A program made the translations under genes and the position numbers. Positions 15,262-24,865 of a DNA stretch of 64,000 nucleotides are shown piece after piece. The notes beneath the pieces were generated by a model that had not been told where the DNA came from, made no database searches, and saw only the letters and a list, made by a program, of their open reading frames with translations. How positions within the stretch are numbered: the first letter of the stretch is position 1; each line of letters begins with the position of its first letter. Source of the stretch: Streptomyces lincolnensis (GTDB lineage: Bacteria > Actinomycetota > Actinomycetes > Streptomycetales > Streptomycetaceae); NCBI RefSeq assembly GCF_001685355.1, contig NZ_CP016438.1:4278001-4342000 (forward strand). Reading direction: 5' to 3'.

Positions 15262-15303
15262 ATCTCATCAACTACCCCGAGTTTCCCCGGGAAGTTGTTG
15301 CGG

Positions 15304-15377
15304 TGGACCTGAGGGGATTCGAACCCCTGGCCCCCTCGATGCGAACGAGGTGCGCTACCGGACTGCGCCACAGGCCC
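15304..15377 (-). tRNA. tRNA-Ala (CGC)
   Basis: The minus strand folds as a cloverleaf: a 7-bp acceptor stem (GGGCCTG/CAGGTCC), a D arm with AGTCCGGTAGC, an anticodon arm CCTCG-TTCGCAT-CGAGG with anticodon CGC, and a T arm AGGGG-TTCGAAT-CCCCT. The G3:U70 pair, the alanine identity element, is present. Discriminator base is A; the CCA end is not encoded (CCG follows). It reads GCG codons, abundant in this genome. Confidence 0.95.
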
Positions 15378-15492: not shown

Positions 15493-16755
15493 TCACTCGT
15501 TGGCGGCCCGCGGCCGGTCGCCGTCCTCGTACTGGTCGAAGAGGGGGGTGCGGCCGCGCTCGCGGGCGCGGCGGGCGGAGGCGGCGCGACGCGCGTCACT
15601 GCGGTCGTCGGTCGATGGCCTGTCCTCCGAGTCGGAGGACGGTTCCTCCGATCCCCCGTCGCCCGCGCCCGACTGCGCCTCCTGCTCCGGGGTGGCGGAG
15701 CTGGACCGGGCCGAGCTCCAGGCGTCCGGCGCCCCGAGGTCCACGTCGGAGGTGGCGCGTGGCGCGACGGGCGCGGTCACGTAGGTGGGCAGGGGCACCG
15801 GGACCGGGTCCCAGCTGTCTCCGTGGGCCGGCCGCTGCTGGCGCTCGCGCTGCTGGTCGACCCACTCCGCGTGGTCGGTCTGCTCGACGAGCGCGCGCCG
15901 GTCGGCGGCCAGCGCCGACAGTCCGGGGTCCGTCTCGGGCTCCGGGCTTTCGTCCGGCTCCTCGGAGTCGGCGCTCGCGTCGACCGTCACGCGCCGACGC
16001 GGCTGGCGCGAGCGTTCGCGCAGGCGCTGCGCGGCGGCCTCGGCCCGACGCCGGTCCATCTGGTAGGCGAAGCGCCGGCGCTCCTGGGAGCGCAGATGGG
16101 CGATGTACGCGCTGAGCAGCACGGCGGGCACACCGGGCGCCCACAGGAACGCGAGCCCTCCGACCGCGGCGACGATCGCGCCGAGCGTGAAGGCGAGGAA
16201 GAGCATGACCGTCGTACGCCGACGGCGCGCGAGCACCTTCGTGCGCCGGGCGCGCGCGGCGGCCGCCTCCTCGGCGGGCGTGCGCCTCGGGGCCGACACC
16301 CGCTTCCGCGCCGGTGCGGCACCGGACCGCGGTGCGGCGCCGGACCGCTGCGCCGATTCGGGGTGCTCGTCGCGCACGGACTCGCGCTCCGGTTCACGCG
16401 CGGGCTCACGCGCCGCTTCGCGCGCCGGTTCCGAACGCTCCGCGCCGGGCGCGCGCACCGATGCCTGTGTCCGAGGACGGGTCGGGGGCATGGCGAAGGC
16501 CCGGACGTCCACCGAGTCGGTGACGGCGTCCGGGTCGGCGACGCCGGACTCCCCCTCCTCGGTGGAGCGCGCCCGCAGGTCCTTGGCGTATCGGCGCTCC
16601 ATCCCCGCCCGGCCGGACAACAACCGGATGGCCGTGCTGAAGCGTTCCGTCGGACGGGCCTCGTTCAGCTCGTCCTGCCTACGGAGCCACATCGGCACCA
16701 AGTAGGCGGCCCAGGCCCCGACAATGACTGCGTAGATGAGGCCGCTGCTGCTCAC
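15493..16755 (-). CDS. sepX: SepX/GlpR-type divisome membrane protein
   Basis: 420 residues. One N-terminal membrane helix (GLIYAVIVGAWAAYLVPMW) leads into a conserved stretch (RRQDELNEARPTERFSTA, then RRYAKDLRARS). A long acidic/Arg-rich disordered linker follows, then a hairpin of two membrane helices near residues 185-225, and a long, poorly conserved acidic tail. This architecture and the linkage to galU, a MoeA-like gene and a RimJ-like gene match SepX of Streptomyces, a septation protein, and GlpR of Corynebacterium, the membrane receptor for the gephyrin-like protein Glp. The name rests on remembered sequence and synteny, not on an alignment. Confidence 0.75.
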   Translation of the reverse strand: MSSSGLIYAVIVGAWAAYLVPMWLRRQDELNEARPTERFSTAIRLLSGRAGMERRYAKDLRARSTEEGESGVADPDAVTDSVDVRAFAMPPTRPRTQASVRAPGAERSEPAREAAREPAREPERESVRDEHPESAQRSGAAPRSGAAPARKRVSAPRRTPAEEAAAARARRTKVLARRRRTTVMLFLAFTLGAIVAAVGGLAFLWAPGVPAVLLSAYIAHLRSQERRRFAYQMDRRRAEAAAQRLRERSRQPRRRVTVDASADSEEPDESPEPETDPGLSALAADRRALVEQTDHAEWVDQQRERQQRPAHGDSWDPVPVPLPTYVTAPVAPRATSDVDLGAPDAWSSARSSSATPEQEAQSGAGDGGSEEPSSDSEDRPSTDDRSDARRAASARRARERGRTPLFDQYEDGDRPRAANE

Positions 16756-16939
16756 GCCTCACACGGTAGAGGGGTTTGCGTGAGGCCATCCGCCAATTGA
16801 GTCGGTGTGTCGCACGATCTGGCTGATATTTCGAGCTTTTTTTGTGACGGATGCGATCAACAGACCGCCGAGGAGGCGAATTCAATGCCCTCAGGTGGTC
16901 ATCCGCCGATCATTATCGAACATTTATTCAATTTCCCGG

Positions 16940-17578
16940 CTATGCGGGATTGTCGTGGGGCGTGCTCCTGGATCGTGCCCGCTGCCAGCGCCGGAGCAAA
17001 CCGTCGGGCACCTCTTCCGCGGTGAGCGCGAACACGAGGTGGTCGCGCCAGGCTCCGTCGATGTGGAGATAGCGCGGGCGCAGCCCCTCCTCGCGGAATC
17101 CGAGTTTCTCCACGACCCGGCGGCTGGGCCCGTTCTCCGGGCGAATGCAGACCTCGATGCGATGCAGACCGACGGTTCGGAAACAGTGGTCCACCGCGAG
17201 CGCCACGGAGGTCGGCATCACACCGCGGCCGGCCACCGACTCGTCCACCCAGTACCCGACATGCCCCGAGCACATCGAGCCCCAGGTGATACCGGCGACC
17301 GTCAACTGCCCGACCAGCCGCCCCTGGTACTCGATCACGAACGGCAGCATCCGGCCGGCGCTCGCCTCGTGCCGCAGATGGCGGACCATCTGACGGTAGG
17401 TCGGCCGGTGCGCGACCGGTCCGCTGGGGGTGGGCGGCGGGATGGTCGCCTCCCAGGGCCGCAGCCAGTCCCGGTTGCGCCGGTTGACCTCGCGCCAGGC
17501 CCGCTGGTCGCGCATCTTTATCGGCCTCAGGACGACATCGCCGTCCGCCAGTACGACGGGCCAGGAGGGGCTGTTCAG
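16940..17578 (-). CDS. RimJ/RimL-type GNAT acetyltransferase, probable CTG start
   Basis: Acetyltransferase with the acetyl-CoA loop DESVAGRGVMPTSVALAVD, then the C-terminal RIEVCIRPENGPSRRVVEKLGF typical of ribosomal-protein N-acetyltransferases. The first ATG (17515) would remove the opening strand: the frame continues upstream as VVLADGDVVLRPIK with no ATG, GTG or TTG. CTG at 17578 is preceded by GGGGG and overlaps the upstream stop as CTGA, mirroring the ATGA junctions of this operon, so it is the best start (212 residues). RimJ-like genes occur in the Glp/GlpR division cluster, but any role there is unknown. Confidence 0.85.
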   Translation of the reverse strand: MNSPSWPVVLADGDVVLRPIKMRDQRAWREVNRRNRDWLRPWEATIPPPTPSGPVAHRPTYRQMVRHLRHEASAGRMLPFVIEYQGRLVGQLTVAGITWGSMCSGHVGYWVDESVAGRGVMPTSVALAVDHCFRTVGLHRIEVCIRPENGPSRRVVEKLGFREEGLRPRYLHIDGAWRDHLVFALTAEEVPDGLLRRWQRARSRSTPHDNPA

Positions 17579-18111
17579 CTCGCACCCCCGGTGCCGGCGC
17601 CGGGTCTGGGGTGATCGCCGCCGCGGATCTGGTCGACGGCGTGCGTCAGGAGGGGCTCCAGGACGGCCAGTCCGTCCTTCACCCCGCCGCTGGACCCCGG
17701 CAGATTGACGATCAGCGTCCGCCCCGCCACTCCGGCCAGCCCCCGGGAGAGCGCCGCCGTCGGCACCTTGTCCCGTCCGTACGCCCGGATGGCCTCCGCG
17801 ATGCCCGGCACCTCGTGGTCGAGCACCGCGCGGGTCGCCTCGGGGGTGCGGTCGGTGGGCGAGATGCCGGTGCCGCCGGTGGTGACGATCACGTCGTAAC
17901 CGGCCTCCACGGCGGCCCGCAGCGCGGCCTCCACCGGGTCCCCGTCGGGCACGACCTGCGGTCCCTCGACGGTGAAGCCGAAGCCCCTGAGGCCCTCGGC
18001 GACCAGTGGGCCGCCCTTGTCCTCGTAGATCCCGGCGGCGGCACGGTTGGAGGCGGTCACGACCAGCGCGCGGTACGGCGCGGGCGGGGTGCCGTGCGCC
18101 CCGGCGCTCAT
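17575..18111 (-). CDS. mog: Molybdopterin adenylyltransferase-like protein (MoaB/Mog)
   Basis: 178 residues. The MoCF-biosynthesis fold shows [11 protein letters not shown], the molybdopterin-binding [15 protein letters not shown] and [13 protein letters not shown]. Family enzymes adenylate molybdopterin before molybdate insertion. Start ATG 18111 overlaps the moaC stop (ATGA), and its stop overlaps the next gene. It sits between moaC and the sepX-linked acetyltransferase. Confidence 0.9.
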
Positions 18112-18620
18112 GCCCGGCTCCAGTCGCCCGACTTGCCGCCCGTCTTCTCCTCCACCCGCACGTCCGTGATCACCGCTCCCTTGTCGACCGCCTTGACCAT
18201 GTCGATCACGGTGAGCGCGGCGACGGACACCGCGGTGAGGGCCTCCATCTCGACACCGGTACGGTCGGTCGTCTTCACGGTGGCCCGGATCTCCACGGCG
18301 TCGTCCGCGACCCGCAGGTCCAGTTTCACACCGGAGACCGCCAAGGGGTGACACAGCGGGATGAGGTCGGGGGTGCGTTTGGCGCCCATGATGCCCGCGA
18401 TCCGCGCGGTGGCCAGGGCGTCCCCCTTGGGGACGCCCTCGCCGCGCAGCAGCTCGATCACGCGGGGCGAGACCAGGACCCGGCCGCTGGCGCTGGCGGT
18501 GCGCGCGGTCACGTCCTTCCCCGACACGTCGACCATGCGGGCGGCACCCGCCTCGTCGATGTGGGTCAGTCGGTCCTGCACTGGGGCTCCGGGGGTCTCC
18601 CCCCGGGAAGGCTCAGTCAT
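18108..18620 (-). CDS. moaC: Cyclic pyranopterin monophosphate synthase MoaC
   Basis: 170 residues. MoaC converts the MoaA product to cyclic pyranopterin monophosphate, an early step of molybdenum-cofactor synthesis. Diagnostic sequences are [39 protein letters not shown] and the C-terminal [12 protein letters not shown] 18620 starts after a 173-bp gap from the MoeA-like gene. That gap holds no recognisable gene and could contain its own promoter. Confidence 0.95.
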
Positions 18621-18793
18621 GCTGTGTCGCGCTCCCGGTCCGGGCCCCGCGCGGTACGGCGCGCGGGCCTGTTGTGCGCGACACGGTACCCCCAAGTCGG
18701 GGCGCGCAAGGGCACGGGACCGGGCGGTGGACACGGGTGGACACGCGGGCGCGCGGCTCCCGGCCGGGCGCCGGCGGGTCCGCGCGCGCCCGG

Positions 18794-20116
18794 TCAGCCG
18801 AGCAGGACGACCTCGACCTCGGCACCGGGCTCGACGGACTCCACGTCCTCGGGGACGACGATCAGCGCGTCCGCGTGCGCGAGGGCCGCGACCAGGTGGG
18901 ATCCGGTGCCTCCGACCGGGGTCGCGGCGCCGTCGGCGTACGTCCCGCGCAGGAACTGTCTGCGGCCCTTCGGCGAGGTCAGCGCCTTGTCCGTGGTGAG
19001 GGTCGCCGTGGTCCGGGGCCGGTGGACGTCGTCGAGGCCCATGAGGGCGCGGATCGCGGGGCGGACGAACAGCTCGAAGGAGACGTACGACGACACCGGG
19101 TTGCCCGGGAGCGCGAGCAGCGGGGTGTGGTCGGGGCCGATGGAGCCGAAGCCCTGGGGCTTGCCGGGCTGCATGGCCAGCTTGCGGAAGTCGATGCCGC
19201 TGCCGGCCTCGTCCTCGTCGCCGACGTGGGACAGGGCCTCCTTGACGACGTCGTACGCCCCGACGCTGACACCGCCTGTGGTGACCATGAGGTCGGCGCG
19301 GACGAGCTGGTCCTCGATGGTGGAGCGGAGGGTCTCGGCGTCGTCGGTGACGGCGCCCACGCGGTAGGCGATGGCGCCGGCGTCCCGGGCGGCGGCGGTG
19401 AGGGCGAAGCTGTTGGAGTCGTAGATCTGGCCGTGGCCCAGTTCCTCGCCGGGCTGGACGAGTTCGCTGCCGGTGGACATGACGACCACGCGCGGGCGCG
19501 GGCGCACCCGGACGGTGCCGCGGCCGATCGCGGCGAGCAGGCCGATCTGCGGCGGGCCGAGGACGGTGCCCGCTTCGAGGGCGCGGTCCCCCGCCTTGAC
19601 GTCGCTGCCCTTGGCCCGCACGTGCGCGCGTGCGGCGGCCGGTCGGTACACGTGCACATGCCCCTCGGCGCCCTCGGGGGCCTGGGCGCGAGCGCGCATC
19701 CCGGTGACGGGTCCCTCGCCGAGTCCGCCGTCGGTCCATTCGACGGGGACGACGGTCTCGGCGCCGGGCGGCAGCGGGGCGCCGGTCATGATGCGGGCGG
19801 CCTGGCCGGGGCCCACGTGGAGCAGGTCGGCCTGGCCGGCCGCGACGTCCCCGACGACCTCCAGGGCGGCCGGGAACTCCTCGCTCGCGCCCGCGACATC
19901 CGCGACCCGTACCGCGTACCCGTCCATGGAGCTGTTGTCGAACGGCGGCAGGGACACCGGGACCGTGACGTCCTCGACCAGGACGCAGCCCTGGGCGTCG
20001 AGCAGTTGCAGCTCGATGGGTTCGAGGGGGCGGACGGTCGCGAGGATGTCCTCCAGGTGCTCGTCCACCGACCACAGGTGGTCCGGGCCGACGGTGCGGG
20101 GCGCGGCGCTGCTCAA
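18794..20116 (-). CDS. glp: MoeA/gephyrin-like protein (Glp type)
   Basis: 440 residues with the four-domain MoeA layout: domain I/II near the N-terminus with [11 protein letters not shown], a beta-barrel insert, the MPT-binding domain III with [15 protein letters not shown] and [15 protein letters not shown], and a C-terminal domain IV. MoeA inserts molybdate into molybdopterin. In Corynebacterium a MoeA homologue between galU and rimJ/glpR, named Glp, instead acts with GlpR and FtsZ in cell division. The same neighbours here make a Glp role likely; molybdenum function is still possible because moaC and mog adjoin it. It starts four bases after galU ends. Confidence 0.85.
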
Positions 20117-20120
20117 CGTG

Positions 20121-21023
20121 CTACATCTCCTCGGCTACGTAACTGCGAAGCCAGGTCCGGAAGTCCGGGCCCAGGTCCTCACGTTCGCATGCGAGTCTGA
20201 CAATGGCACGCAGATAGTCGCCGCGGTCGCCGGTGTCATAGCGGCGGCCCTTGAAGACGACGCCGTGCACCGGGCCGCCGACCTTCTCGTCGGTGGCGAG
20301 CTGCTGGAGGGCGTCGGTGAGCTGGATCTCGCCGCCGCGGCCGGGCTCGGTCTGGCGGAGTATGTCGAAGATGTGCGGGTCGAGGACATAGCGGCCGATG
20401 ATCGCGTAGTTCGACGGGGCGTCCGCCGGGTCGGGCTTCTCGACCATGCCGGTCACCTTGACGACGTCGCCGTCCTCGGTGGCCTCCACGGCCGCACAGC
20501 CGTAGAGGTGGATCTGCTCGGGCGCGACCTCCATGAGCGCGATGACGCTGCCGCCGCGCTGTTCCTGGACCTCGACCATCCGCTTGAGCAGCGGGTCGCG
20601 CGGGTCGATGAGGTCGTCGCCGAGGAGGACGGCGAAGGGCTCCCGGCCCACGTGGGGGGCCGCGCACAGGACGGCGTGGCCGAGGCCCTTGGGGTCGCCC
20701 TGACGGACGTAGTGCATGGTGGCGAGGTCGCTGGACTCCTGCACCTTGGCGAGCCGGTTCGCGTCGCCCTTCTTCTGAAGGGCCGACTCCAGCTCGTAGT
20801 TGCGGTCGAAGTGGTCCTCCAGGGGGCGCTTGTTGCGGCCCGTGATCATGAGGACGTCGTCGAGACCCGCGGAGACGGCCTCTTCGACCACATACTGGAT
20901 CGCCGGCTTGTCGACGACCGGCAACATCTCCTTGGGAGTTGCCTTGGTGGCCGGCAGGAAACGGGTGCCGAGGCCTGCCGCCGGGATGACAGCCTTACTG
21001 ATCCGAGGGTGCGACTGAGTCAT
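20121..21023 (-). CDS. galU: UTP-glucose-1-phosphate uridylyltransferase
   Basis: 300 residues. GalU makes UDP-glucose from UTP and glucose-1-phosphate, for cell-wall, glycan and trehalose precursors. The N-terminus has AAGLGTRFLPATKATPKEM, followed by DKPAIQYVVEEA, a sugar-binding VLLGDDL, EKPDPADAPS and GDRGDYLRA. It heads the minus-strand run galU-moeA/glp-moaC-mog-GNAT-sepX. The upstream 83-bp gap to the divergent folate gene presumably carries both promoters. Confidence 0.96.
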   Translation of the reverse strand: MTQSHPRISKAVIPAAGLGTRFLPATKATPKEMLPVVDKPAIQYVVEEAVSAGLDDVLMITGRNKRPLEDHFDRNYELESALQKKGDANRLAKVQESSDLATMHYVRQGDPKGLGHAVLCAAPHVGREPFAVLLGDDLIDPRDPLLKRMVEVQEQRGGSVIALMEVAPEQIHLYGCAAVEATEDGDVVKVTGMVEKPDPADAPSNYAIIGRYVLDPHIFDILRQTEPGRGGEIQLTDALQQLATDEKVGGPVHGVVFKGRRYDTGDRGDYLRAIVRLACEREDLGPDFRTWLRSYVAEEM

Positions 21024-21106: not shown

Positions 21107-21736
21107 GTGCAACCTTTGAGTCACGCCGGACGTCCGGGCGAGCCTGACAAGCGAATGTTGCGGCGGGAGTTCCTCGCGGTGAGGAGCAGGTTGACGGCGG
21201 ATGACGTGCGCGAAGCCGCGGTCGCGCTGGCCGAACGGGCGCTTGAGCTGCCCGAACTGGCGCGGGCGCGCACCGTGGCGGCGTACGTCTCCGTGGGGAG
21301 CGAACCGGGAACGCTCGCGCTGTTGGACGCGCTGCGCGCGCGGGGCGTGCGGGTGCTCCTGCCGGCTCTCCTCCCCGACAACGACCTCGACTGGGGCGCC
21401 TACGCGGGCGAGGGCTCCCTCGCCCGCGTCCAACACGGCGGAAAAATGGCCCTCTTCGAACCGGCCGGCGAGCGCCTGGGCCCGGACTCCGTGACCGGGG
21501 CCGACGTCGTGCTGCTGCCCGGCCTCGCGGTCGACGCCCGCGGGATGCGCCTGGGGCGCGGCGGAGGCTCGTACGACCGCGTCCTCGCGCGCCTGGAGCG
21601 TGCGGGCGCGCATCCCGCGCTGGTGGTGCTCCTGTACGACTCCGAGGTCGTCGACCACATTCCGGCCGAGGCACACGACCGGCCGGTGCAGGCGGTCGTG
21701 ACACCGTCGGGGGTGCGCCGCTTCCCCAGCGCCTGA
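21107..21736 (+). CDS. 5-formyltetrahydrofolate cyclo-ligase
   Basis: 209 residues from GTG 21107. The enzyme recycles 5-formyl-THF to 5,10-methenyl-THF using ATP. Visible are KRMLRREFLAVR at the N-terminus, the central FEPAGERLG, VVLLPGLAVD and the nucleotide/folate motif RLGRGGGSYDR. Family length is about 190-210. It is divergent from galU and ends at a strong hairpin shared with the penicillin acylase gene. Confidence 0.93.
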   Translation: MQPLSHAGRPGEPDKRMLRREFLAVRSRLTADDVREAAVALAERALELPELARARTVAAYVSVGSEPGTLALLDALRARGVRVLLPALLPDNDLDWGAYAGEGSLARVQHGGKMALFEPAGERLGPDSVTGADVVLLPGLAVDARGMRLGRGGGSYDRVLARLERAGAHPALVVLLYDSEVVDHIPAEAHDRPVQAVVTPSGVRRFPSA

Positions 21737-21807: not shown

Positions 21808-24624
21808 TCACGGTCTCAGTACCAGGGTGTCGCTCGTGGTGTCGTCGACCGCCTTGTCCGAGAAGGACCAGTCCAGCAGCTCGCCGTCGGCCCACTTGTC
21901 CGTCTGGTCGGTGTAGTGGGCGCTGTAGGCGTGTCCGGAGGCGCCTGTGAGGTTGATCCACTTCGACTTGTCGAGGTCGGCGAGGTTGACCACCATGCGC
22001 ATGGACGGCACCCATACGACCTCGTAGCCGCCGGCCGCGTTCCAGCCGGTCGCGTTGACCGCCGCCTCGCCGCCGCTGAGCTTCCAGGGGCCGCGGTTGA
22101 GCATGTACTGGAGGAAGCCGGGGCCCTCGGTGCCCAGGGTCTGGTTCTTCAGGAACAGGCGGTGCAGCCGGCCCCAGCTCCAGGTGTCGATGTCCTTGCC
22201 GAGCTTGGAGGTCAGCTCCCAGCGGGCGTCGATCATGGCGCGCTTGAACAGCTGGTCGCGGTTGGTCGCCTTGGGACGGCTGTCGCCCACCCCGGCCGGC
22301 GTCCTCCACCAGTCGCTGTTCGGCTCGTTCATGAGCTTGCGGACCACCTCGAACCAGCGGTCGCCGCCGTCCGGCTGCGCCTGGTCGGCGTCGCGCTGGC
22401 CGCACTCGAGCACCTTGCCGGTCTCGTCGACCGGGGCGGTGGAGTTGACCGGGTCCACCCACAGGCACTGGCCCTTGACCCGCAGCTCCTTGGGGAGCTT
22501 GTTGCCGAAGGCGAGCTTGAGGATGTTGCGCCAGACCGCGTTGAAGTAGGCGGCCGCCGCGGAGTCGGCGTCCTGGGTGTAGTCCCAGCCCTCCAGCAGC
22601 TCCTGCGCCTCGCGGACGTCCTTGTCGGCGAGGTCGATCTTCAGCAGCTTGGGGACGAGCAGCTTGGCGATCTCACTGCTGTTGTCCAGCTGCATCTGGC
22701 GCATGTCGTCGGTGGAGATCTTGCCGTCGCCCTTGATCTTCTGCTCGATCAGGTCGGTGATCCGCTGGCTGCGGGTGCCGTAGCCCCAGTCCGTGGTGAG
22801 CGTGTAGGGGTACTTGTCCTGGTCGATCACGGCCTGGTTGGCGGTGACGATGTAACCGCGTTCCGGGTTGTACTCGTAGGGCAGCGCGTCCTTGGGGATG
22901 TAGCCGGTCCACTTGTACTTGGAGTCCCAGCCCGGGGCCGGGAGGGAACCGTCGTCGCCCTCCGCGCGCGTGGGGATCTTTCCGGGCAGCGTGTAGCCGA
23001 TGTTGTCGTCGGTGTCGGCGTAGACCAGGTTCTGCGACGGCACGTCGAACAGGGCGGCGGCCTCGCGGAAGCCCTTCCAGTCGGTGGCCCGGTCCATCGC
23101 GAAGACCGCGTCCATGGAGGTGCCCGGGTCCAGCGCGGTCCATCTCAGGGCGATGCCGTAGCCGTCGCCGCGGTCGGGGGCGGCGGTGTCGACGGTGGCC
23201 TTCTTGCCGACCTTCACCAGCTCGTTGTCGCGGTCGGACAGCAGGGGCATCCCGTCGCTTGTCTGCCGCACGACGATCTTCTTGGGCTCGCCGCCGGCGA
23301 CCTTGATGGTCTCCTCGCGCGTGGTGAACGGCTTGACCTTGCCGTCGTAGAGGTAGCCGTCGCCGGTGAGCTTCTCCAGGTAGAGGTCGGTGACGTCGAC
23401 ACCGGAGTTGGTCATCCCCCAGGAGATGTTCTGGTTGTGGCCGATGACCACGCCGGGCATGCCCGCGAAGGTGTAGCCGGTGACGTCGTACTGGCACTTG
23501 GCGGAGACGCTGCGGCAGTGCAGGCCCATCTGGTACCAGACGGACGGCAGCGAGGGCGACAGGTGCGGGTCGTTGGCCAGGAGCGGCTTGCCTGTGATGG
23601 TGTGTTCCCCGCCCACGACCCAGGAGTTGGAGCCGATGCCGTTGCCGTTCACGCCGACGGCCGTGGGGACGTCGTCCAGGACCCTGTAGAGGCCCTCCAG
23701 CTGGCTTTCGAGGGCCGAGGAGGCGGAGCCCTGCGTGCCGATTCCGGTGCCGCCGGAGCCGCTCGTGCCGGTGCCCGCTCCCGTACCCGTGCCCGTTCCG
23801 GAGGTGCCGTTCCCCGAGGTGCCGGAGCCGTCGTCGCCTCCGTCGAAGGTCTTGGTCAGCTCGTCGTACTGGCCCTGCTGGACGATCGCCTGGTTGCGGC
23901 TGTAGGGGTACGCCGGGTACAGGTCGGCGATCTGCTTCGGGCCGAGACGGCTGGTCATCAGGGCGCGGTCGATCTCGTCCTGCATGTTGCCGCGCAGGTC
24001 CCAGGCCATCGCCTTCAGCCACGAGACCGAGTCGACGGGGGTCCACTGCGCGGGCTTGTAGTCGTTCTCGAAGCCGAGCGCCGCGTACTCCAGGGAGATC
24101 TGCTTGCCGCTCTTGCCCTGGAGGTAGGCGTTGACCCCCTTGGCGTAGGCCTGGAGGTACTTCTTGGTGGAGGCCGACAGCTTCTTGTCGTACTCCTCCT
24201 TGGCGACCCGGTCCCAGCCGAGCGTGCGCAGGAACTCGTCGTTGTCGACCTGGCCCTTGCCGAACATCTCCGACAGGCGCCCGGAGGTCATGTGACGGCG
24301 CACGTCCATCTCGTAGAACCGGTCCTGCGCCTGGACGTAGCCCTGCGCCATGAACAGGTCCTCGTCGGAGGAGGCGTAGATCTGCGGGATGCCGTAGCTG
24401 TCACGCTTGACGTCCACGGGTCCCGACAGGCCCTCGAGCGAGATCGAACCCTTGGTCTGCGGGAAGGAGGCGCGCACCGTACTGATGGACCAGTACGCCC
24501 CGTACGCCACGCCTGCGACGATGGCCAGAACCAGGACGAAAACGACCAGGCGGGCTCTGCGCCCCTTCTTCCTGCCGGACTTGCCGGGCTTCTGACCCGA
24601 AGAGGCGGTGGTGTTGGGGGGCAT
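21808..24624 (-). CDS. Penicillin acylase-family Ntn-hydrolase
   Basis: 938 residues from ATG 24624. A basic N-tail and one membrane segment (RARLVVFVLVLAIVAGVAYG) point to a membrane-anchored or exported enzyme. The alpha chain carries VDVKRDSYGIPQIYA and QGYVQAQDRFYEMD. The processing site leads into the beta chain with the nucleophile serine in IGSNSWVVGG, then NDPHLSPSLPS and VGHNQNISWGMT-like sequence. A Gly/Thr/Ser-rich linker with GTGTGTG-type repeats precedes the beta chain. The family cleaves amide-linked acyl groups such as beta-lactams or acyl-homoserine lactones; the substrate is not predictable. Confidence 0.93.
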   Translation of the reverse strand: MPPNTTASSGQKPGKSGRKKGRRARLVVFVLVLAIVAGVAYGAYWSISTVRASFPQTKGSISLEGLSGPVDVKRDSYGIPQIYASSDEDLFMAQGYVQAQDRFYEMDVRRHMTSGRLSEMFGKGQVDNDEFLRTLGWDRVAKEEYDKKLSASTKKYLQAYAKGVNAYLQGKSGKQISLEYAALGFENDYKPAQWTPVDSVSWLKAMAWDLRGNMQDEIDRALMTSRLGPKQIADLYPAYPYSRNQAIVQQGQYDELTKTFDGGDDGSGTSGNGTSGTGTGTGAGTGTSGSGGTGIGTQGSASSALESQLEGLYRVLDDVPTAVGVNGNGIGSNSWVVGGEHTITGKPLLANDPHLSPSLPSVWYQMGLHCRSVSAKCQYDVTGYTFAGMPGVVIGHNQNISWGMTNSGVDVTDLYLEKLTGDGYLYDGKVKPFTTREETIKVAGGEPKKIVVRQTSDGMPLLSDRDNELVKVGKKATVDTAAPDRGDGYGIALRWTALDPGTSMDAVFAMDRATDWKGFREAAALFDVPSQNLVYADTDDNIGYTLPGKIPTRAEGDDGSLPAPGWDSKYKWTGYIPKDALPYEYNPERGYIVTANQAVIDQDKYPYTLTTDWGYGTRSQRITDLIEQKIKGDGKISTDDMRQMQLDNSSEIAKLLVPKLLKIDLADKDVREAQELLEGWDYTQDADSAAAAYFNAVWRNILKLAFGNKLPKELRVKGQCLWVDPVNSTAPVDETGKVLECGQRDADQAQPDGGDRWFEVVRKLMNEPNSDWWRTPAGVGDSRPKATNRDQLFKRAMIDARWELTSKLGKDIDTWSWGRLHRLFLKNQTLGTEGPGFLQYMLNRGPWKLSGGEAAVNATGWNAAGGYEVVWVPSMRMVVNLADLDKSKWINLTGASGHAYSAHYTDQTDKWADGELLDWSFSDKAVDDTTSDTLVLRP

Positions 24625-24865
24625 CGCTGTCCTTGCTGTCCTAACGCGAGCGGCAGGCGGGCTGTGACTTCGAATGAGCGCTGGAGCAACCATAGGCGCA
24701 GGGCCCGGCGCGACTTGACGCGGAGTCGGGAACCAGCACGGACGGGCGTTCGATCATGCACCGGGAAGCGTCAAGAAATCGTCAAGAGTTAGGTAAGGTA
24801 ACGAAGTACTTGGGTGCGGAGCCCTGCCTCTTCGTGTCCTATGTACGTGAGCCCACTCCCGCGTC

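What the first reader, a model, noticed from the sequence alone, without database searches (positions are those of the whole stretch)
15493..21023. galU - gephyrin-like glp/moeA - rimJ - sepX/glpR: a cell-division cluster that also holds moaC and mog
The minus-strand order galU, MoeA-like, moaC, mog, RimJ-like GNAT, SepX/GlpR-like protein reproduces the corynebacterial galU-glp-rimJ-glpR cluster, in which a MoeA homologue works in division with a membrane receptor. Here real molybdenum-cofactor genes (moaC, mog) are inserted into the cluster. That raises the possibility that the streptomycete MoeA has both molybdenum and divisome roles. Seen: gene order, ATGA overlaps, SepX topology. Known: SepX in Streptomyces septation, Glp/GlpR in Corynebacterium. 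Inference: functional Glp-SepX pairing here.
Basis: partly seen in the sequence, partly recalled or inferred. Interest (0 to 1): 0.78.

Follow-up and report, generated by a model that had tools for sequence, protein, structure and literature searches.

The report
Division-cluster enzyme that kept its chemistry
A protein known in corynebacteria as a dead enzyme reused for cell division appears, in Streptomyces and most of its sampled relatives, still to be a working molybdenum-cofactor enzyme sitting beside a cell-division gene, so it may do both jobs at once, as gephyrin does in animals.

Summary
The gene order is real: galU, glp, moaC, mog, rimJ-like, sepX on the minus strand. The MoeA-like protein groups with corynebacterial Glp; the genome's other MoeA does not. 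NCBIfam already names Glp and SepX/GlpR, so the cluster itself is known.

"Inserted" moaC and mog is wrong: they are ancestral, and absent in the corynebacterial-type layout. In 98 genomes of the class, 94 division-locus Glp copies were scored. Beside moaC, 67 of 69 keep the MoeA catalytic core; away from moaC, 0 of 25. On a tree of the neighbouring genes the catalytic state changed about 10 times (at least 7 on supported branches). All 13 sampled genomes without a cofactor pathway keep glp beside sepX. In 26 pathway-positive genomes Glp is the only MoeA homologue found. So the dead Glp looks derived and the usual Glp looks bifunctional, against the published prediction that Glp lost catalysis.

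For Streptomyces itself, catalysis is supported by sequence only (52 of 54 conserved positions). A division role is inferred: the loop that binds FtsZ and GlpR in Corynebacterium is shorter and poorly conserved, and a second MoeA is nearly universal in the genus.

The parts
20121..21023 (-). galU, UTP--glucose-1-phosphate uridylyltransferase; upstream member of the cluster
   Evidence: TIGR01099 351.3 bits, cut-off 326.8
18794..20116 (-). glp: MoeA-family protein of the division cluster with an intact Moco catalytic core
   Evidence: NF045515 Glp_gephyrin 574.7 bits, cut-off 475; groups with C. glutamicum Glp 8bve; 52 of 54 phylum-conserved MoeA positions kept; core residues read
18108..18620 (-). 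moaC, cyclic pyranopterin monophosphate synthase; the only MoaC match in this genome
   Evidence: TIGR00581 207.7 bits, cut-off 141.5; 1 match in G000
17575..18111 (-). mog, Mog/MoaB-family protein, probable molybdopterin adenylyltransferase; overlaps moaC by ATGA; the only PF00994 match in the genome besides the two MoeA homologues
   Evidence: TIGR00177 103.9 bits, cut-off 85.35; 3 PF00994 matches in G000; junction read
16940..17515 (-). RimJ-like GNAT acetyltransferase
   Evidence: PF13302 60.5 bits, cut-off 25.4; RimJ equivalog under cut-off
15493..16755 (-). sepX/glpR: membrane division protein with an N-terminal transmembrane helix, a basic low-complexity segment, a second membrane region and an acidic tail
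   Evidence: NF050099 SepX_GlpR_2 241.7 bits, cut-off 150; hydropathy and pI; alignment A2
21107..21736 (+). divergent 5-formyltetrahydrofolate cyclo-ligase upstream of galU, outside the finding
   Evidence: TIGR02727 132.4 bits, cut-off 84.9

Best explanation
This is the ancestral form of the actinobacterial Glp/SepX division cluster. Glp here is still a molybdenum insertase: it takes adenylylated molybdopterin made by Mog (a neighbouring gene) and inserts molybdate, with moaC supplying an earlier step. The same protein probably has a second, non-Moco role tied to SepX/GlpR at the division site, as shown for Glp in Corynebacterium. In lineages where the Moco duty was lost with the whole pathway, or another MoeA is present, moaC-mog left the cluster and the catalytic site decayed, while glp stayed beside sepX with an open reading frame. 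Shown by sequence: cluster, orthology, catalytic-core retention, its tie to moaC linkage, repeated changes of state, retention without Moco. Inferred: catalytic activity in Streptomyces, the direction of the changes (from the outgroup), and the physical Glp-SepX link in Streptomyces.
For: (1) Orthology: Glp model over cut-off; on a tree built without the catalytic columns the window protein lies among division-locus copies with C. glutamicum Glp, the genome's second MoeA in another clade. (2) Core (12 positions) intact in 67 of 69 moaC-linked copies and 0 of 25 unlinked ones. With only the eight residues mutated in E. coli MoeA structures: 64 of 69 against 1 of 25. (3) On a galU+rimJ+sepX tree: 10 changes of catalytic state, at least 7 on starred branches; 6 of 6 independent pairs agree, p 0.031. 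(4) 26 Moco-pathway genomes hold Glp as the only MoeA homologue in two searches; 25 have the core intact; 4 are single-contig assemblies. 25 of the 26 have PF02738 or PF00174 molybdoenzymes; G013 has only a second PF00384 protein. (5) All 13 genomes without MoaA, MoaC, PF02738 or PF00174 keep glp beside rimJ-sepX. Where same-genus pairs exist, pN/pS is 0.04-0.14 (f21), 0.24 (f5) and 0.51-0.55 (f11). In all 6 f21 genomes domain II is missing while III and IV are kept. (6) Outgroup: in 19 fetched loci from other classes the eight residues are intact in 19, the 12-position core in 18. (7) Streptomyces: 79 of 79 readable cores identical and intact.
Against: In Streptomyces 149 of 151 genomes have at least two MoeA_N proteins, so Glp need not be the working insertase there; the second lies beside a MobA-like gene. 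The Corynebacterium FtsZ/GlpR hairpin is not conserved: 15-17 residues in 71 of 79 Streptomyces against 24 in C. glutamicum, Y369 gapped in 70 of 80; though V338 is kept in 42 of 80, and five of six f21 copies are 15 long too. The SepX co-immunoprecipitation section names no MoeA. Unlinked copies are also more diverged outside the conserved set (median 49% against 67%), and the two groups overlap on it (0.39-0.94 and 0.81-1.00), so decay is partly general divergence. Constraint in f11 is weak. Exceptions: linked G039 and G079 break the core rule; unlinked G032 breaks it only at G281P. The number of changes does not itself tell loss from gain.
Confidence: 0.6

Rival explanations
1. Outside Mycobacteriales this is simply the housekeeping MoeA of a moa operon. 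Its place beside sepX is passive synteny, and a division role arose only where catalysis was lost.
For: Catalytic core intact in 67 of 69 linked copies; moeA-moaC adjacency older than the class; hairpin for FtsZ/GlpR shorter in Streptomyces; no rimJ in the 19 outgroup loci; in a whole-genome search with SepX alignment A2 only 5 of 13 outgroup genomes matched, one of them on another contig.
Against: All 13 of 13 sampled genomes with no Moco pathway kept glp beside sepX, and the catalytic state changed about 10 times, at least 7 on supported branches. A purely enzymatic ancestor would need a new function at most of these events. Several positions are shared by intact and decayed division-locus copies but rarer in other MoeA proteins.
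Confidence: 0.27
2. The published view holds here too: Glp is a repurposed, catalytically inactive paralogue and the second MoeA makes Moco.
For: A second MoeA is near-universal in Streptomyces (149 of 151) and lies beside a MobA-like gene in this genome; PMC11733289 predicts loss of catalysis for Glp.
Against: The window Glp keeps 52 of 54 conserved MoeA positions, against 39 for C. glutamicum Glp and 42 for the second Streptomyces MoeA; 79 of 79 readable Streptomyces cores are intact; Glp is the only MoeA homologue found in 26 Moco-pathway genomes.
Confidence: 0.09
3. moaC and mog were inserted into a corynebacterial-type galU-glp-rimJ-glpR cluster in the streptomycete line.
For: The Mycobacteriales-like family f4 has the four-gene order.
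Against: moaC-linked division-locus copies occur in 22 families of the class; 19 of 55 genomes of other classes have MoeA directly followed by moaC.
Confidence: 0.02

Closest known systems
Glp/GlpR of Corynebacterium glutamicum (Cgl0883/Cgl0885; PDB 8bve, 8bvf; PMC10522489)
   Same: MoeA-family protein of the same clade, encoded near a membrane receptor with three TM helices and two oppositely charged disordered segments; best sequence match in the PDB and top, though nearly tied, structural match.
   Different: C. glutamicum Glp lost the Mg-binding Asp (E. coli D228, Gly there) and keeps 39 of 54 conserved MoeA positions against 52 here. Its hairpin is 24 residues against 15-17 in most Streptomyces. 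SepX charge order is reversed here: basic then acidic, against acidic then basic.
SepX of Streptomyces venezuelae (vnz_14865; PMC8748795)
   Same: NCBIfam places the window protein in SepX/GlpR; charged low-complexity segments between membrane segments as described for SepX.
   Different: 420 aa here against 344 reported. The main text of the paper holds no MoeA, gephyrin, GlpR or galU.
Gephyrin (animals) and plant Cnx1
   Same: MoeA fold that keeps molybdenum-insertase activity and, in gephyrin, also scaffolds a membrane receptor: the model the data suggest for Glp.
   Different: Both carry a fused Mog domain; here mog is a separate gene in the same cluster.
E. coli MoeA (PDB 1fc5, 1g8l)
   Same: Eight of the nine residues altered in the MoeA mutant structure series are kept (D59, T100, R137, D142, E188, D228, R350, S371).
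   Different: The ninth, K279, is Gln here, as in most linked division-locus copies and in the archaeal structure 1uz5.

Membership tests
Glp (molybdotransferase-like divisome protein) | NCBIfam Glp_gephyrin equivalog cut-off | tested here: met
   574.7 bits against 475; MoeA_actino 488.5 against 560
Glp (molybdotransferase-like divisome protein) | Groups with C. glutamicum Glp and not with housekeeping MoeA | tested here: met
   Tree of 146 MoeA-family rows, catalytic columns removed. Quick method with long-branch warnings; division-locus copies are not one clean clade (6 changes of label, at least 4 on starred branches); 92 of 94 fall under one fork (support 90) with the window, C. glutamicum Glp and 3 other MoeA rows
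Glp (molybdotransferase-like divisome protein) | Proline-rich hinge linking domains I and III | tested here: met
   PRPR at 206-209; present in 60 of 67 intact, 13 of 27 decayed and 10 of 50 other MoeA. That PRPR is a published hinge is my inference from the domain limits given; the second hinge was not tested
Glp (molybdotransferase-like divisome protein) | FtsZ-binding loop of domain IV (V338, L360, M361, Y369, L370 in C. glutamicum) | tested here: not met
   Window residues T, Y, A, gap, A; in 80 Streptomyces V338 is V in 42, L360 is Y or H in 76 and Y369 is a gap in 70; loop 15-17 residues in 71 of 79 against 24
Glp (molybdotransferase-like divisome protein) | Gene near glpR/sepX | tested here: met
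Glp (molybdotransferase-like divisome protein) | Loss of Moco catalysis, as predicted for Glp in PMC11733289 | tested here: not met
   Sequence test only: core intact; activity not assayed
Molybdenum insertase MoeA | Catalytic-cleft residues D59, T100, R137, D142, E188, D228, R350, S371 (E. coli) | tested here: met
   All eight kept; positions known from titles of the mutant structures
Molybdenum insertase MoeA | Molybdate insertion activity | not testable with these tools
   Needs complementation or enzyme assay
SepX/GlpR | NCBIfam SepX_GlpR cut-off | tested here: met
   NF050099 241.7 bits against 150
SepX/GlpR | Three transmembrane segments and two disordered cytoplasmic segments | tested here: inconclusive
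   Hydropathy finds segments 6-24 and 183-201; a third just after is under my threshold
SepX/GlpR | Direct binding to Glp | not testable with these tools
   No complex prediction or assay available

The most novel reading that the evidence does not exclude
Actinobacterial Glp is at root a moonlighting enzyme, a bacterial counterpart of gephyrin that kept its chemistry. One gene served Moco synthesis and SepX-linked division since early in the class, perhaps before it. The dead Glp of Corynebacteriales is one of several independent escapes from that conflict, each tied to the loss of Moco duty or its transfer to another MoeA.
Probability: 0.55. Interest if true: 0.76.

Novelty: new variant of a known kind. 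Interest (0 to 1): 0.62.

Why it matters
[quoted passage not shown] The genomes sampled here go against both as general statements. If right, most actinobacteria of this class, Streptomyces included, carry an enzyme-scaffold hybrid that links a metal-cofactor pathway to cell division, and the repeated losses give a natural experiment for separating the two functions. There is also a practical side: current automatic naming would call the only MoeA of many genomes a "molybdotransferase-like divisome protein", so those genomes would appear to lack MoeA.

Tried and rejected
Insertion of moaC and mog into the cluster: rejected by the outgroup order. Its second (no SepX similarity): tested, not met.

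Named sampling outside Streptomyces failed. "Mycobacteriales-like" for f4 is my inference from gene order and from C. glutamicum Glp falling beside it. That the window is from Streptomyces, and that its class is Actinomycetes, is likewise inferred from these hits.

FtsZ-pocket conservation as a division marker was abandoned: it is strong only in f4. A SepX tail motif (WxPVPxPLPTYVT-like) is present in 54 of 91 SepX proteins by my strict pattern and missing in several families, so it is not used as evidence.

SepX in other classes is weak. My iterated profile gives E 3.2e-9 or better in 13 of 19 loci, but reversed sequences reach 4.7e-5, and a whole-genome search with alignment A2 matched only 5 of 13 such genomes at E 0.001, one of them on a contig other than the cluster's. 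I therefore do not rest the argument on it.

Dropped rows: 5 of 98 genomes have no scorable division-locus copy (G002, G056, G067, G081, G091); G067 is cut by a contig end. In one search, G091 and G067 had no SepX match and G056 had one on the same contig about 30 kb away. In one search one of 80 Streptomyces copies is cut by its contig end. The Fisher p ignores relatedness and is not relied on. dN/dS was tested only for three of the Moco-less lineages (f21, f5, f11; 8 pairs); dS is saturated in f21 and f5, so pN/pS is quoted.
Full report
OBSERVATION. The window (G000:C1:4278001-4342000 of a 10.3 Mb single-contig genome) holds, on the minus strand, galU 20121-21023, glp 18794-20116, moaC 18108-18620, mog 17575-18111, a RimJ-like GNAT 16940-17515 and sepX 15493-16755. 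moaC and mog overlap by ATGA; the other gaps are 4, 173, 59 and 184 nt. NCBIfam names the MoeA-like protein Glp (574.7 bits, cut-off 475) and the last protein SepX/GlpR (241.7 bits, cut-off 150), so that equation and these names are already public. NCBI entries for near relatives carry the Glp name too.

KNOWN BACKGROUND. For C. glutamicum, PMC10522489 (abstract, passages, section 5 part 1 of 3 and section 8 read) reports that Glp binds FtsZ (Kd 4.7 uM) and the membrane receptor GlpR (5.5 nM), that Glp without the loop does not bind GlpR, and that glp and glpR co-localise in genomes. [quoted passage not shown] PMC8748795 (abstract, passages, section 10 read) describes SepX; its main text holds no MoeA, gephyrin, GlpR or galU. 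No paper in the library holds SepX with GlpR and FtsZ, or SepX with Glp and divisome. Searches for Glp, GlpR, FtsZ, gephyrin and MoeA, for MoeA with divisome and moonlighting, for MoeA with Streptomyces and moaC and for Glp, MoeA and GlpR listed nothing whose title or abstract suggests that the present point is in print. PMC12393619, listed, was not read.

SYNTENY ACROSS THE CLASS. I searched 98 genomes drawn from the class, in 58 genera. MoaC was found in 85 and MoaA (Mob_synth_C) in the same 85. I fetched about 5-11 kb around each best Glp hit and 40 paralogue regions, and classified the genes by iterated profiles. 94 division-locus copies in 93 genomes could be scored: 69 copies (22 families) have moaC on the same strand within 237 nt of the glp domain edge, and 25 (10 families, two of them mixed) do not.

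CATALYTIC CORE. Residues were read from an alignment with E. coli MoeA and C. glutamicum Glp. Positions D59, T100, R137, D142, E188, D228, K279, R350 and S371 were mutated in the E. coli structure series (titles); D228 coordinates Mg (PMC9458074, passages). With a 12-position core, 67 of 69 linked copies are intact and 0 of 25 unlinked. With eight of the mutated residues (K279 left out) the figures are 64 of 69 and 1 of 25. The exceptions are G039 and G079, three S371A copies of f16, and the nearly intact unlinked G032. With a data-driven set (54 positions shared by E. coli and at least 18 of 19 outgroup MoeA), linked copies keep a median of 94% (0.81-1.00) and unlinked copies 70% (0.39-0.94). 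Unlinked copies are also more diverged elsewhere (49% against 67%), so not all of the decay is specific. The window Glp keeps 52 of 54, C. glutamicum Glp 39 and the second Streptomyces MoeA 42. In named Streptomyces, 79 of 79 readable copies have one identical intact core.

INDEPENDENCE. On a tree of galU, rimJ and sepX, which leaves Glp out, the catalytic state changes 10 times and at least 7 times on starred branches. Linkage changes 8 times. All 6 independent pairs on starred branches go the same way (p 0.031). The tree is a quick one, some long branches meet, and such counts do not tell loss from gain; the direction comes from the outgroup. On the MoeA tree with catalytic columns removed, the window protein is inside the main division-locus group and the second Streptomyces MoeA is in a separate clade (SH-aLRT 100). 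The division-locus copies are not one clean clade: two fall outside the main group and three other MoeA rows fall inside it.

TWO NATURAL EXPERIMENTS. First, Moco without another MoeA: 26 genomes with MoaA and MoaC have exactly one match in both the Glp-model search and the MoeA_N search. In 25 of them the match is over the Glp cut-off, G069 being under it. 25 are core-intact; G079 has D142A. G022, G026, G051 and G054 are single-contig assemblies; the others are drafts, in which a second gene could be missed. 25 of the 26 have PF02738 or PF00174 proteins (xanthine-dehydrogenase- and sulfite-oxidase-type, names recalled), and G013 has only a second PF00384 protein. A further 12 linked, intact genomes have one MoeA_N match but two Glp-model matches. 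Second, Glp without Moco: 13 genomes lack MoaA, MoaC, PF02738 and PF00174 matches and have a single PF00384 match. All 13 keep glp beside rimJ-sepX with a decayed core. pN/pS is 0.04-0.14 in f21 and 0.24 in f5, and 0.51-0.55 in f11, where it is higher than for galU and rimJ and like that of sepX. In all 6 f21 genomes the aligned part of the protein covers 2-3% of domain II, about 90% of domains III and IV and 58% of domain I; domain II is a wall of the MoeA active site. One of those six, G088, has a Moco cluster with its own MoeA elsewhere.

POLARITY. In other classes of the phylum, 19 of 55 genomes have MoeA followed within 300 nt by moaC on the same strand (my reading); in the other 36 the two are apart or one is missing. 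In these 19 fetched loci the eight residues are intact in 19 of 19 and the 12-position core in 18, L268 having G281A. galU is upstream in 14 and rimJ is in none. A SepX-like gene is downstream in 13 by my profile, but this is weak (see Tried and rejected). So moaC was not inserted into the cluster; the corynebacterial-type order arose by its departure.

WHAT IS WEAK. For Streptomyces itself the division role is inference. Most C. glutamicum FtsZ-pocket residues are not kept, and the hairpin is 15-17 residues in 71 of 79 readable Streptomyces, against 24 in C. glutamicum and 19-20 in many families. Short hairpins also occur in f21, f25 and some outgroups, so length alone decides little. A second MoeA is present in 149 of 151 Streptomyces genomes; the two exceptions are drafts of 290 and 950 contigs. 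Two facts favour Glp as an insertase all the same: the genome's only MoaC and Mog matches lie beside it, and its site is the better preserved one. The SepX of the window has a basic first and an acidic second segment (pI 11.1 and 5.0), the reverse of C. glutamicum GlpR.

VERDICT. The cluster is known; its reading is not. The best-supported account is a bifunctional MoeA/Glp, ancestral to the class, that several lineages stripped of catalysis. The molybdenum half is strong by sequence. The division half is well supported for the family and unproven in Streptomyces.

Noticed in passing
L126, L125, L129, L127, L128, L130 (family f21 genomes of 1.3-1.4 Mb): Glp in which MoeA domain II is missing, in all six sampled genomes of the family; a minimal natural division-only Glp candidate.
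   Followed up: partly
L159:3867-6211 (+): The second MoeA of this genome follows a MobA-like gene and precedes a gene that looks like a TrkA-type channel (my reading); in G088, G082 and G025 a MoeA of the same clade lies beside moaC.
   Followed up: partly
window 16755-16940, about 16807-16813: The rimJ-sepX gap holds GACAC, the core I recall for WhiA sites, in line with SepX being a WhiAB target in S. venezuelae; sepX may have its own promoter.
   Followed up: no
window 15493-16755, acidic tail of SepX: Tail motif WDPVPVPLPTYVTAP shared by SepX of many families (54 of 91 by my pattern) and not found in f4; a candidate binding motif.
   Followed up: partly
L089 and L082 (family f4): A mog-like gene lies upstream of galU in two of six f4 loci, which may be a remnant or a separate paralogue.
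   Followed up: no
window 15302-15377 (-): tRNA-Ala (CGC) directly downstream of sepX.
   Followed up: yes
window 21808-24693 (-): Penicillin-acylase-like protein of 961 aa (my reading) with only a weak, partial match to the PvdQ model.
   Followed up: no
NCBIfam NF045515: Naming consequence: the model would call the only MoeA of many genomes a divisome protein, so those genomes look as if they lacked MoeA.
   Followed up: partly
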